Shown here: positions 28,397 to 31,768 of the stretch, in pieces
Layout of the letters: every line of letters starts with the position of its first letter
How positions within the stretch are numbered: position 1 is the stretch's first letter
Origin: Candidatus Heimdallarchaeota archaeon
GTDB taxonomy: Archaea; Asgardarchaeota; Heimdallarchaeia; Heimdallarchaeales; Kariarchaeaceae
DNA: 64,000 nt
Direction of reading: 5' to 3'
Assembly: GCA_030149205.1 (NCBI GenBank)
Contig: JASBSB010000005.1
Span: 1 to 64,000, forward strand
Made by a program: the position numbers and the translations under genes
Notes under the pieces: model-generated
Told to the model about the DNA's origin: nothing
Databases searched by the model: none
The model's input: only the letters and a program-made list of their open reading frames with translations

Positions 28397-29182
28397 ATGA
28401 AGATTGTTGTACTTCTAAAAGCAGTGCCAGACACAGAAACGAGATTCAAAATTCGTGAGGATGAGACTGACGTAGTATATGATGATTCTATAGAATGGAT
28501 TGCATCCCCATACGATGAATATGGGTTGGAAGCAGGCATTCAGTTCAAGGAGAAACTAGATGGCACTGAACTGACCATATTGACTCTGGGCAAAGGTAAT
28601 GAGAGTCAAGTGATTAGAAAAGCATTGGCAATGGGAGCTGACAAGGCTTCCTTGATAAACAACGAGGATCTTGCTAGCAGCGACCCACTGGGAGTTGCAA
28701 AGGTACTAGCAAAGGAGCTTGAAGAGCTGAAACCAGATCTGATAATAGCAGGTAGGTTAGCCACTGATTCATCAGATAGCTTTGTAGGACCAGCACTCGC
28801 TGAAATAATGAAATACAGTTTGGTTTCAGAAGTATCAACTATCGAAAATTTTGATGAATCTCATCTTGTTGTACTGAGGGACGCGACAGGCAGAAAAGAG
28901 AAGTTTGAAGTCAAGCTCCCCGCATTAATTACCACAGATAAGGGTTTAAACGAGCCTAGATATCCCAAACTTCCAGATATTATGAAAGCAAAAAGAAAAC
29001 CACTTGATGAGAAAGACTTAGCTGAGTTGAGTGCAATTTCAGGAGTTGCAAATCGCAAAGTAAAACAAGTAAAGGTAGCATTTCCACCGAAGAAACAGGG
29101 TGGAGAGATATTTACTGGAGACCTCGATGAAGCTGTTGATAAACTTGTAAAGGCGTTACATGATAAGGAGAAGGTGTTTTAA
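28397..29182 (+). CDS. etfB: Electron transfer flavoprotein beta subunit
   Basis: KIVVLLKAVPDTETRFKI, DEYGLEAGIQFKE, LGKGNESQVIRKALAMGADKA, AGRLATDSSDSFVGPALAE. Confidence 0.95.
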   Translation: MKIVVLLKAVPDTETRFKIREDETDVVYDDSIEWIASPYDEYGLEAGIQFKEKLDGTELTILTLGKGNESQVIRKALAMGADKASLINNEDLASSDPLGVAKVLAKELEELKPDLIIAGRLATDSSDSFVGPALAEIMKYSLVSEVSTIENFDESHLVVLRDATGRKEKFEVKLPALITTDKGLNEPRYPKLPDIMKAKRKPLDEKDLAELSAISGVANRKVKQVKVAFPPKKQGGEIFTGDLDEAVDKLVKALHDKEKVF

Positions 29183-30129
29183 TGAAAATCGTCATATTTT
29201 TAGAAAGTTATAACGGAAAGCTGGTCAAGGCAGCCAAAGAAGCAATTTCAGTTGCAGATAAAATTGATTCAGGTGCTGAGAAGATAGGGGTACTTTTGGG
29301 TACTGATTTAGATTCTATAGCAAATGATCTTAAGAATTATGGTCTGAAGGAAGTTTACAAAGGTGAGGGTGGTGAATATGCAACTTATCATTCCAGTATC
29401 TATGCCAAAGCCATTAAATCAGTAGATGCTGATTATTATGTAATTCCTGGAACTGTCTGGGGTAGAGAAATCGGTCCAAGATTAACTGTCATGCTAGATT
29501 CATCATTTGCTGGAGATGTCACCGAAGTATTAGACAGTACCAAATTTGTAAGATCAATACACGGAAACAAAGTTCTTTCAACCGTAGAGGTTTCTGGTCA
29601 AACTGTTGTAACAGTCAGACCTGGAGTCTTTGACTTACCATCAGAAACACCCTCTGAATATGAGCTAAAAACACTTGAAGGACATAAGGAAGACCATGAT
29701 GAAAATGTTTCACTTGTTGAAGTTTTAGCCGCTGAGAGTGGTAAAATTGAGCTTACTGAGGCAGACATCATAGTCTCTGGGGGTAGAGGTGTTAAAGGCC
29801 CCGAAAACTTTCATTTGATTGAAGAATTAGCTGGTCTGTTAGGTGCCGCAGTGGGTGCATCTCGAGCTGTTGTTGATGCAGGGTGGAGACCACACTCAGA
29901 GCAAGTTGGTCAAACTGGTAAGTTTGTCAGTCCAAAACTTTACATGGCTGTGGGAATCTCAGGTGCAATTCAACATTTAGCAGGAATGTCAACCTCTGAT
30001 ATTATTGTAGCAATTAACAAAGACGAAGAGGCACCTATTTTCAAGGTTTCAGATTATGGCATTGTAGGTGACCTCTTTGTGGTAGTTCCTAAACTTATGG
30101 AAAAAATAAAGGAAGTCAAAAATCAATAA
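29182..30129 (+). CDS. etfA: Electron transfer flavoprotein alpha subunit
   Basis: C-terminal FAD domain IVSGGRGVKGPENFHLIEELAGLLGAAVGASRAVVDAGWRPHSEQVGQTGKFVSPKLYMAVGISGAIQHLAGM; overlaps etfB by 1 bp. Confidence 0.96.
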   Translation: MKIVIFLESYNGKLVKAAKEAISVADKIDSGAEKIGVLLGTDLDSIANDLKNYGLKEVYKGEGGEYATYHSSIYAKAIKSVDADYYVIPGTVWGREIGPRLTVMLDSSFAGDVTEVLDSTKFVRSIHGNKVLSTVEVSGQTVVTVRPGVFDLPSETPSEYELKTLEGHKEDHDENVSLVEVLAAESGKIELTEADIIVSGGRGVKGPENFHLIEELAGLLGAAVGASRAVVDAGWRPHSEQVGQTGKFVSPKLYMAVGISGAIQHLAGMSTSDIIVAINKDEEAPIFKVSDYGIVGDLFVVVPKLMEKIKEVKNQ

Positions 30130-30173
30130 ATAATCTCTAAGAAACTAAAGTCTTCATCTGATATTTTACGGAA

Positions 30174-30182
30174 TATATAAAA
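30174..30182 (+). promoter_or_regulatory. TATA box of the tRNA gene (TATATAAAA)
   Basis: Centred about 30 bp upstream of the mature 5' end at 30208. Confidence 0.5.
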
Positions 30183-30207
30183 ATTAGAAATTAATCTTAG
30201 AATTATA

Positions 30208-30326
30208 GAGGTAGTAGCTCAGCTTGGAAGAGCGCTGCCCTTCTAAAAATGTGGTTAAACCTCATTTGTAGCAAGGCAGATGTCGCGGGTTCGAAATCCA
30301 ATAAGACGAAATTCCCGTCTACCTCG
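30208..30326 (+). tRNA. tRNA-Arg(UCU) interrupted by two introns: 30246-30273 (37/38) and 30296-30312 (59/60)
   Basis: Acceptor GAGGTAG/CTACCTC, D stem GCTC/GAGC, anticodon stem CTGCC/GGCAG with spliced loop CTTCTAA, T stem GCGGG/CCCGT with spliced loop TTCGAAT; both introns fit BHB folds. Confidence 0.9.
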
Positions 30327-30361
30327 TAATTTATTATCAATTTTATTTTTATGTTTTAATT

Positions 30362-31588
30362 TCACCAAAGAGTTTTGACATTTACTGATGGTGCATCTTG
30401 ATCCCAAGATGAACTAGTATTTCCAACCTCTTCACCCAAATCCAAAGCATATGGAGAATCCACCCCAGATAATATAACTGTTACTTCAAGCTTGTTCCCT
30501 AAACTTTCGTCCTTGTCAGTTCCCCAAATAATTTCAGCACCCCTACCAATTTCTTGAGTAATCATTCTAACACTTCTCTTAATCTCATCCAAGCTTAGTG
30601 ATTCTCCTCCTGTTATCTGAATCAAAGCAGCCTTAGCATCCGAGATTTGAATATCCAAAAGGTTTGAAGCAAGTGCCTCTGCTATGGCTTCTTCCACTCG
30701 ATGTTCTCCTTCTCCTTCTCCTACTCCAATTACAGAACTACCACCCCTGGTAAGAATTTGTCTGATGTCTGCGAAATCTACATTCACATAAGCTTTGCTT
30801 TTGATTAGGTTAACAATTCCTCTAACAGCTTTGATTAAGATCTCGTCAGCGACCTTAAATGCCAAATCTAAGGGGAGGTCTGAACTTAATTGTAATAATT
30901 TCTCATTTGGAATTACTATAACTGTATCACATGATTTGTATAGCTCTCTTAACCCTTCCAATGCATTTTTGATCTTGTACTCTCCTTCCATCTCAAATGG
31001 TAATGTACAAACTCCAACAACCAAGGCACCTTGTTCTTTTGCTACACTTGCTATAACTGGAGCAGCACCAGTTCCTGTTCCACCTCCCATTCCTGCTTGC
31101 ACGAAAACTAGATCTGCACCAGACACCAATTCTTCAATCTCTGGGATTGATTCCTCTGCAGCTGCTCTGCCTATCACGGGGTCATTTCCTGCTCCAAGCC
31201 CCTCAGTTAGGTTTTTTCCAAGTATCAATTTCTTGTTACTATTGGTACTGTAGAGATGAAAAGCGTCAGTGTTCGCTGCAACTGACACCGCCCCCTTCAA
31301 GCCCTTTAGGTGCAATCTGTTAACAGCATTTGAACCTGCTCCACCCACCCCAAACACCAGTATCTTGTTTAGATTGTTGGTAATCAAGACTTTTATAATA
31401 TTGTCAACCTGGTCAGAGTTGTATTTGCTCTTTTTATCATTCAGCGGAATTTCATTAGATGATTTCTCTTGATGTTTCCTCTTTATACTGGAAATAAAGG
31501 ATGGTTCTTTGATTTTGGGTTCTTGTGACTGATAAACAGTCTCCAACTCATCCCACATATCAAGATGATCTTTAATGGGAGAACTCAT
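30362..31588 (-). CDS. ftsZ: Cell division protein FtsZ
   Basis: Tubulin signature GGGTGTGAAPVIA, GVGGAGSNAVNRL, NTD; likely start at MSSPIKDHLDMW. Confidence 0.96.
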   Translation of the reverse strand: MSSPIKDHLDMWDELETVYQSQEPKIKEPSFISSIKRKHQEKSSNEIPLNDKKSKYNSDQVDNIIKVLITNNLNKILVFGVGGAGSNAVNRLHLKGLKGAVSVAANTDAFHLYSTNSNKKLILGKNLTEGLGAGNDPVIGRAAAEESIPEIEELVSGADLVFVQAGMGGGTGTGAAPVIASVAKEQGALVVGVCTLPFEMEGEYKIKNALEGLRELYKSCDTVIVIPNEKLLQLSSDLPLDLAFKVADEILIKAVRGIVNLIKSKAYVNVDFADIRQILTRGGSSVIGVGEGEGEHRVEEAIAEALASNLLDIQISDAKAALIQITGGESLSLDEIKRSVRMITQEIGRGAEIIWGTDKDESLGNKLEVTVILSGVDSPYALDLGEEVGNTSSSWDQDAPSVNVKTLW

Positions 31589-31768
31589 AGAAAAAAATCT
31601 AGTACTTAGAATTAATAAAGAAGTCAATATAGATGTGTTATGTCAGTAGTATCGAACCAAGGAGTATACTGAATTATTACAAATAAAAAGTATATTTTAG
31701 TAAGCTAATGGAATAGGGAGAAGCCTTTAATCAATATATTAAAATATGTTACTTACAGTATATCTACA

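What the first reader, a model, noticed from the sequence alone, without database searches (positions are those of the whole stretch)
30208..30326. tRNA-Arg(UCU) split by two BHB introns
The gene is not a contiguous cloverleaf. Removing 30246-30273 and 30296-30312 yields a complete 74-nt tRNA-Arg with perfect acceptor, D, anticodon and T stems and standard 7-nt anticodon and T loops. Intron 1 (28 nt, 37/38) fits: anticodon stem CTGCC/GGCAG, central helix CTTC/GTAG with one U-U mismatch, 3-nt bulges TAA and CAA, inner helix AAATGTGG/CCTCATTT with one mismatch, loop TTAAA. Simple tRNA finders may miss or truncate it.
Basis: partly seen in the sequence, partly recalled or inferred. Interest (0 to 1): 0.78.

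Follow-up and report, generated by a model that had tools for sequence, protein, structure and literature searches.

The report
tRNA-Arg(UCU) gene with two introns
An Asgard-type archaeon has interrupted its arginine tRNA gene with two short introns, one of them in the T-loop, a rarer site that at least 21 other tRNA genes of the same genome share; the kind of intron is known, but so many at one site is unusual.

Summary
30208-30326 encodes a 74-nt tRNA-Arg(UCU) interrupted by a 28-nt intron at 37/38 (30246-30273) and a 17-nt T-loop intron at 59/60 (30296-30312). ARAGORN finds nothing in the native sequence and Rfam gives 12.9 bits (cut-off 29). ARAGORN calls tRNA-Arg(tct) once intron 2 is removed, so the T-loop intron is what hides the gene. 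The same intron-tolerant search gives one hit in the window and none in 12 resampled windows. Intron 2 has a perfect UUCG/CGAA central helix but a 2-bp inner helix: a relaxed bulge-helix-bulge site.
The gene belongs to a genome-wide pattern. At least 22 of 43 tRNA genes found carry a 59/60 intron; at least 36 have some intron. At the one base pair left free by the search, tRNA position 57 and the intron match in 22 of 22 genes. The genome encodes a two-subunit splicing endonuclease whose catalytic subunit keeps the loop lysine linked to broad specificity, plus RtcB. Related genomes have far fewer such introns. Position 59/60 and heavy tRNA introns in Asgard archaea are already published. Verdict: real, very probably functional, a new member of a known kind.

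The parts
30168..30185 (+). A+T-rich stretch around GGAATATATAAAAATTAG about 25-40 nt upstream of the gene, compatible with an archaeal BRE/TATA box
   Evidence: read from sequence; no promoter test run, weak
30208..30245 (+). exon 1, tRNA positions 1-37 (acceptor 5' strand, D arm, anticodon 5' stem CTGCC and loop CTTCTA, anticodon TCT)
30246..30273 (+). intron 1, 28 nt, position 37/38; central helix CTTC/GTAG with one U-U mismatch, bulges TAA and CAA, inner hairpin AAATGTGG/CCTCATTT
   Evidence: a 37/38 intron also in same-genus G002
30274..30295 (+). exon 2, tRNA positions 38-59 (anticodon 3' stem, variable loop, T stem 5' strand GCGGG, T-loop TTCGAA)
30296..30312 (+). intron 2, 17 nt, T-loop position 59/60; central helix TTCG/CGAA, bulges AAA and ATT, inner helix TC/GA of 2 bp
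   Evidence: same site and motif in 21 other tRNA genes of the genome
30313..30326 (+). exon 3, tRNA positions 60-73 (T60, T stem 3' strand CCCGT, acceptor 3' strand CTACCTC, discriminator G); no CCA encoded
30327..30360 (+). T-rich tract TAATTTATTATCAATTTTATTTTTATGTTTTAAT, plausible terminator
   Evidence: read from sequence; weak

Best explanation
This is the working, probably sole, tRNA-Arg(UCU) gene of an Asgard-type archaeon. The precursor folds so that each intron closes a bulge-helix-bulge site: one on the anticodon arm, one on the T arm. A heterotetrameric (alpha-beta)2 splicing endonuclease of broad specificity cuts within the two 3-nt bulges of each site, and RtcB joins the exons, giving a 74-nt tRNA to which CCA is added. 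Shown by sequence: both sites, the genome-wide set, and the enzyme genes. Inferred: subunit assembly, cleavage, ligation and expression.
For: Spliced form is recognised as tRNA-Arg(tct), native form is not. Parser: 1 hit in the window, 0 in 12 resamples. Precursor MFE contains the T-arm splice helix. Genome pattern GGTTCRAN{4,34}YGAANNTCC: 26 hits against 4 for the reversed control; 22 of the 26 parse as tRNA genes with a perfect 4-bp central helix. The pattern left tRNA base 57 (R) and its intron partner (Y) free, yet 15 genes are A-T and 7 G-C with no A-C or G-T; chance about 6e-6 (counts). Inner helix mean 4.0 bp against 0.64 in shuffles, 0 of 5000 as high. Seven of the 22 were also found by weak Rfam tRNA hits or over-cut-off hits independent of the pattern. 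Two endonuclease genes: the alpha subunit matches crenarchaeal catalytic subunits through the crenarchaea-specific loop, with A. pernix K44 aligned to K72 here, the loop lysine conserved in all 28 relatives aligned; the beta subunit lacks the catalytic His. RtcB present, E 9e-167. AGA is half of the Arg codons sampled in the window, 176 of 353, and no other UCU tRNA was found.
Against: No RNA data. Intron 2 of this particular gene has only a 2-bp inner helix, the weak end of the set. Intron 1 has a U-U mismatch in the central helix. In-vivo cleavage at 59/60 is inferred from structure only; the endonuclease type is inferred from sequence. Runs of A leave the exact cut position to be set by the motif.
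Confidence: 0.92

Rival explanations
1. The gene is a decayed pseudogene or an assembly error, and the T-loop insertion is a disabling mutation; another tRNA reads AGA.
For: Standard finders miss it; inner helix of intron 2 is only 2 bp; genome 93.5% complete with three expected tRNAs not located (Leu UAA, Pro UGG, Arg CCG).
Against: All cloverleaf stems intact; the same insertion site and motif in 21 other genes, nearly all the only found copy of their isoacceptor; base 57 and intron partner match in 22 of 22; no other UCU tRNA located; AGA heavily used.
Confidence: 0.03
2. The insertion at 59/60 is not removed; the mature tRNA keeps an expanded T loop that folds back as an extra hairpin.
For: The insert stacks as a hairpin on the T stem in the MFE.
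Against: An expanded T loop would break the D-loop/T-loop contacts that tRNA tertiary structure needs (established knowledge); half of the genes in the same genome have a standard 7-nt T loop; the insert carries exact splice-site grammar with two 3-nt bulges, and the genome has a broad-specificity-type enzyme.
Confidence: 0.03
3. Intron 2 is spliced at a neighbouring phosphate (58/59 rather than 59/60), giving T-loop TTCGATT instead of TTCGAAT.
For: Local A repeats (TTCGAAAT...GAAATTCC) allow both readings with a valid 7-nt loop.
Against: Only the 59/60 register puts a perfect 4-bp TTCG/CGAA helix between two 3-nt bulges with the cut after the second bulge base, and the same register fits all 22 introns.
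Confidence: 0.05

Closest known systems
Noncanonical and multiple tRNA introns of Thermoproteales (Sugahara et al. 2008, as summarised in PMC4033280, PMC4090602, PMC8450103)
   Same: Several introns per tRNA gene, bulge-helix-bulge or relaxed sites, position 59/60 explicitly listed among known sites (PMC4090602), (alpha-beta)2 endonuclease with a specific loop
   Different: Here one noncanonical site (59/60) dominates, in 22 of 43 genes, with very short hairpin introns of 17-29 nt; at least 47 introns in 43 genes found (1.09 per gene) against an average 0.84 in Thermoproteales and a record 71 in 46 genes in Pyrobaculum calidifontis (PMC8450103)
tRNA introns of soil Asgard archaea Atabeyarchaeia and Freyarchaeia (PMC11291895)
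   Same: Asgard archaea; 92-95% of tRNA genes with introns, often at noncanonical positions, over half of genes with more than one
   Different: Probably a different class; the passages read do not describe a single dominant T-loop site; here 36 of 43 genes located have introns and 11 have two
Crenarchaeal (alpha-beta)2 RNA-splicing endonuclease with the crenarchaea-specific loop (A. pernix, PDB 3p1z, 3ajv; review PMC6379350)
   Same: Catalytic subunit aligns through the loop, lysine conserved, separate structural subunit
   Different: From an Asgard-type genome; lowest Pfam score for a full-length catalytic subunit among the relatives searched; activity untested

Membership tests
archaeal bulge-helix-bulge tRNA intron (intron 1, 37/38) | 4-bp central helix flanked by two 3-nt bulges, splicing gives a 7-nt anticodon loop | tested here: met
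   CTTC/GTAG 3 of 4 pairs with a U-U mismatch, bulges TAA and CAA, mature loop CTTCTAA; relaxed by one mismatch
archaeal bulge-helix-bulge tRNA intron (intron 2, 59/60) | 4-bp central helix flanked by two 3-nt bulges, splicing gives a 7-nt T loop | tested here: met
   TTCG/CGAA 4 of 4, bulges AAA and ATT, mature loop TTCGAAT
archaeal bulge-helix-bulge tRNA intron (intron 2, 59/60) | inner helix of the strict form | tested here: inconclusive
   only 2 bp, not formed in the MFE; counts as a relaxed bulge-helix-loop form
archaeal tRNA intron | precise removal and exon ligation in vivo | not testable with these tools
   no RNA data
tRNA-Arg(UCU) | complete cloverleaf after splicing, anticodon UCU, conserved T-loop and D-loop bases | tested here: met
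   ARAGORN calls tRNA-Arg(tct) on the spliced form; parser 7/7, 4/4, 5/5, 5/5 pairs
(alpha-beta)2 splicing endonuclease with crenarchaea-specific loop | separate catalytic subunit with Tyr-His-Lys and a specific loop with lysine | tested here: met
   L009 protein, alignments to 3p1z and 2cv8, alignment with relatives
(alpha-beta)2 splicing endonuclease with crenarchaea-specific loop | second, structural subunit without the catalytic triad | tested here: met
   L010 protein matches endonucleases, catalytic His replaced
(alpha-beta)2 splicing endonuclease with crenarchaea-specific loop | cleaves relaxed noncanonical sites | not testable with these tools
   needs biochemistry
Asgard archaea (host) | eukaryotic signature proteins absent from other archaea | tested here: inconclusive

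The most novel reading that the evidence does not exclude
The T-loop introns at 59/60 spread recently through half of the tRNA genes of this one lineage, as a wave into a single conserved site whose TTCR sequence itself supplies half of the splice helix, so that any hairpin ending in YGAA plus two bases becomes a spliceable intron.
Probability: 0.35. Interest if true: 0.62.

Novelty: new member of a known kind. Interest (0 to 1): 0.42.

Why it matters
Two practical points and one evolutionary one. T-loop introns hide about half of the tRNA genes of this genome from simple finders, so tRNA counts and completeness estimates for such archaea will be too low. The universal TTCR sequence of the T loop provides the 5' strand of the splice helix, which explains why one site can be used again and again. 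Comparison of close relatives (0, 1 and 2 introns in tRNA-Arg(UCU) in family members, a same-genus genome and this genome) gives a natural series for how tRNA introns are gained beside a broad-specificity splicing enzyme, in a group close to eukaryotes.

Tried and rejected
A relaxed T-arm pattern in the own genome gave 129 hits against 69 in the control and was too noisy, with a truncated list, to find the three missing tRNAs. Copying of introns between genes was tested: hairpin parts of the 22 introns are only marginally more alike than structure-preserving shuffles (9 of 300 shuffles as high for the mean, 24 of 300 for the best pair), so recent transposition is not shown by sequence. The search for tRNA-Arg(UCU) across the phylum used a strict pattern and found it in only 4 of 232 genomes, so it says nothing about absence elsewhere. 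Pseudogene and retained-insert readings were considered and judged unlikely.

Full report
What is there. Window 30208-30326 (+) lies between an electron-transfer flavoprotein pair (28397-30129, +) and a convergent ftsZ gene (30362-31627, -). Read in tRNA order: acceptor GAGGTAG, D arm GCTC-AGCTTGGAA-GAGC, anticodon stem CTGCC with loop CTTCTA, then 28 nt, then A and GGCAG, variable ATGTC, T stem GCGGG with TTCGAA, then 17 nt, then T and CCCGT, acceptor CTACCTC, discriminator G. Without the 28 and 17 nt this is a 74-nt tRNA-Arg(UCU) whose MFE is the standard cloverleaf.

Is it more than chance. ARAGORN finds no tRNA in the window and Rfam none at its cut-off (the unspliced gene scores 12.9 bits against 29). 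ARAGORN calls tRNA-Arg(tct) on the fully spliced letters; it also does so, with a 28-nt intron, when only intron 2 is taken out; it finds nothing when only intron 1 is taken out. So the T-loop intron hides the gene. An intron-tolerant parser written here finds this gene and nothing else on both strands of the window, and nothing in 12 Markov-resampled windows.

Splice-site anatomy. Intron 1: CTTC/GTAG central helix with one U-U mismatch, bulges TAA and CAA, eight-position inner hairpin. Intron 2: positions 54-57 (TTCG) pair perfectly with CGAA at the 3' end of the intron; bulges AAA and ATT; inner helix only TC/GA. The precursor MFE shows the T stem continued by that 4-bp helix with a 3-nt bulge on the 3' side and a 13-nt loop, so intron 2 is a relaxed form.

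The rest of the genome. The window is part of contig C12 of a 3.3-Mb, 12-contig genome, 93.5% complete. Rfam finds only 22 tRNA genes over cut-off there, too few for an archaeon. A pattern for a T loop interrupted at 59/60 and closed by a YGAA strand gives 26 places against 4 for the reversed control. Twenty-two parse as tRNA genes with standard cloverleaf and a 4 of 4 central helix; the other four are not tRNAs, as many as the control predicts. The 22 are Gly CCC, GCC, TCC; Thr GGT; Asn GTT; Ala CGC, GGC; one CAT; Ser GCT, GGA, CGA; Glu CTC, TTC; Leu TAG, CAA, CAG, GAG; Gln TTG, CTG; Trp CCA; Asp GTC; Arg TCT. Eleven of them also have a 37/38 intron, 14 further genes have a 37/38 intron only, and 7 have none: at least 47 introns in 43 genes (count; the 37/38 assignments of Tyr and Trp are less certain). 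Seven T-loop cases were also found by Rfam hits, most of them weak, that know nothing of the pattern.

Independent evidence for the splice helix. The pattern allowed R at position 57 and Y at its intron partner in any combination. All 22 genes have a Watson-Crick match, 15 A-T and 7 G-C; by random pairing this has probability 1/170544. The part inside the bulges forms hairpins with a mean of 4.0 closing pairs against 0.64 in shuffles, none of 5000 as high.

The machinery. Two PF01974 proteins. The catalytic one matches A. pernix, Sulfolobus and Pyrobaculum alpha subunits best, through the N-terminal stretch that contains the crenarchaea-specific loop, while the M. jannaschii enzyme aligns only from residue 83. 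The lysine of that loop, whose replacement disrupts broad specificity (PMC6379350; numbering K44 and basic residue 46 in PMC12397907), is present here and in the 28 aligned relatives. The other protein matches endonucleases but lacks the catalytic histidine. Two matches per genome is the rule among 58 genomes searched. RtcB is present.

Need for the gene. AGA is 176 of 353 Arg codons in 19 ORFs of the window. No other UCU tRNA was found among 43 genes or by DNA search. This argues for function, with the reservation of an incomplete genome.

Relatives. The same pattern over 232 genomes of the phylum puts this genome first, 26 hits with control 4; the next highest net counts are about 15. Parsed examples: at least 4 in same-genus G001 (two more of its hits look alike but were not fetched), 3 in same-genus G002, 6 in G006, none in G004. 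These are fragmented genomes, but 82-94% completeness of the first three does not account for 22 against 3-6 (G004 is only 68% complete). tRNA-Arg(UCU) has no intron in G004 and G007 (same family), a 37/38 intron only in G002 (same genus), and both here. His and Arg(UCG) carry the T-loop intron in G002 but not here, so gain and loss are quick. Direct copying between genes is not shown.

Organism.

What is known. Position 59/60 is a listed noncanonical site (PMC4090602). Multiple introns are typical of Thermoproteales, 0.84 per gene, record 71 in 46 genes (PMC8450103). Asgard genomes with introns in 92-95% of tRNA genes, often noncanonical and multiple, were published in 2024 (PMC11291895). No paper found by eight searches describes the concentration at one T-loop site in this group, but the library holds open-licence papers only, and the supplementary intron table of PMC11291895 could not be read.

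Verdict. The finding is real and correctly read. It is a new member of a known kind, made more interesting by its genome context.

Noticed in passing
G000 contig ends: L188 1-150 (C5 start), L189 1-150 (C7 start), L190 (C4 end), L191 (C2 end); further hits near ends of C1, C3, C7: A near-identical repeat of about 140 bp (GCACTAGTCAGCTCTGACCCCCTC...TCATCCATTGAGCCTGAGGGCTCAATGCTTGTCCCAGGAGTTTTGGGACAAGC), with two hairpins, sits at most contig ends, so the assembly breaks at it; no Rfam family matches.
   Followed up: partly
L009 1135-1785 (G000:C4:500599-500844): The catalytic endonuclease subunit of this genome has the lowest Pfam score (77.6 bits) among full-length catalytic subunits of the relatives (mostly 88-102), in the genome with most T-loop introns; may be co-evolution or chance.
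   Followed up: partly
L125, L129, L148 (G001), L136, L147 (G002), hits in G016: T-loop introns of relatives are often longer (about 29-31 nt) and several carry a CTGYGGG, CTGCGG or CTGAGGG loop that could be UNCG-like tetraloops; those of this genome are 17-29 nt and lack it.
   Followed up: no
G000 genome: tRNAs Leu UAA, Pro UGG and Arg CCG were not located; they may carry introns that break both search methods, or lie in missing sequence.
   Followed up: partly
L076 1501-1627: tRNA-Tyr(GTA) has an unusually long 53-nt insertion at the anticodon loop compared with 10-32 nt elsewhere.
   Followed up: no
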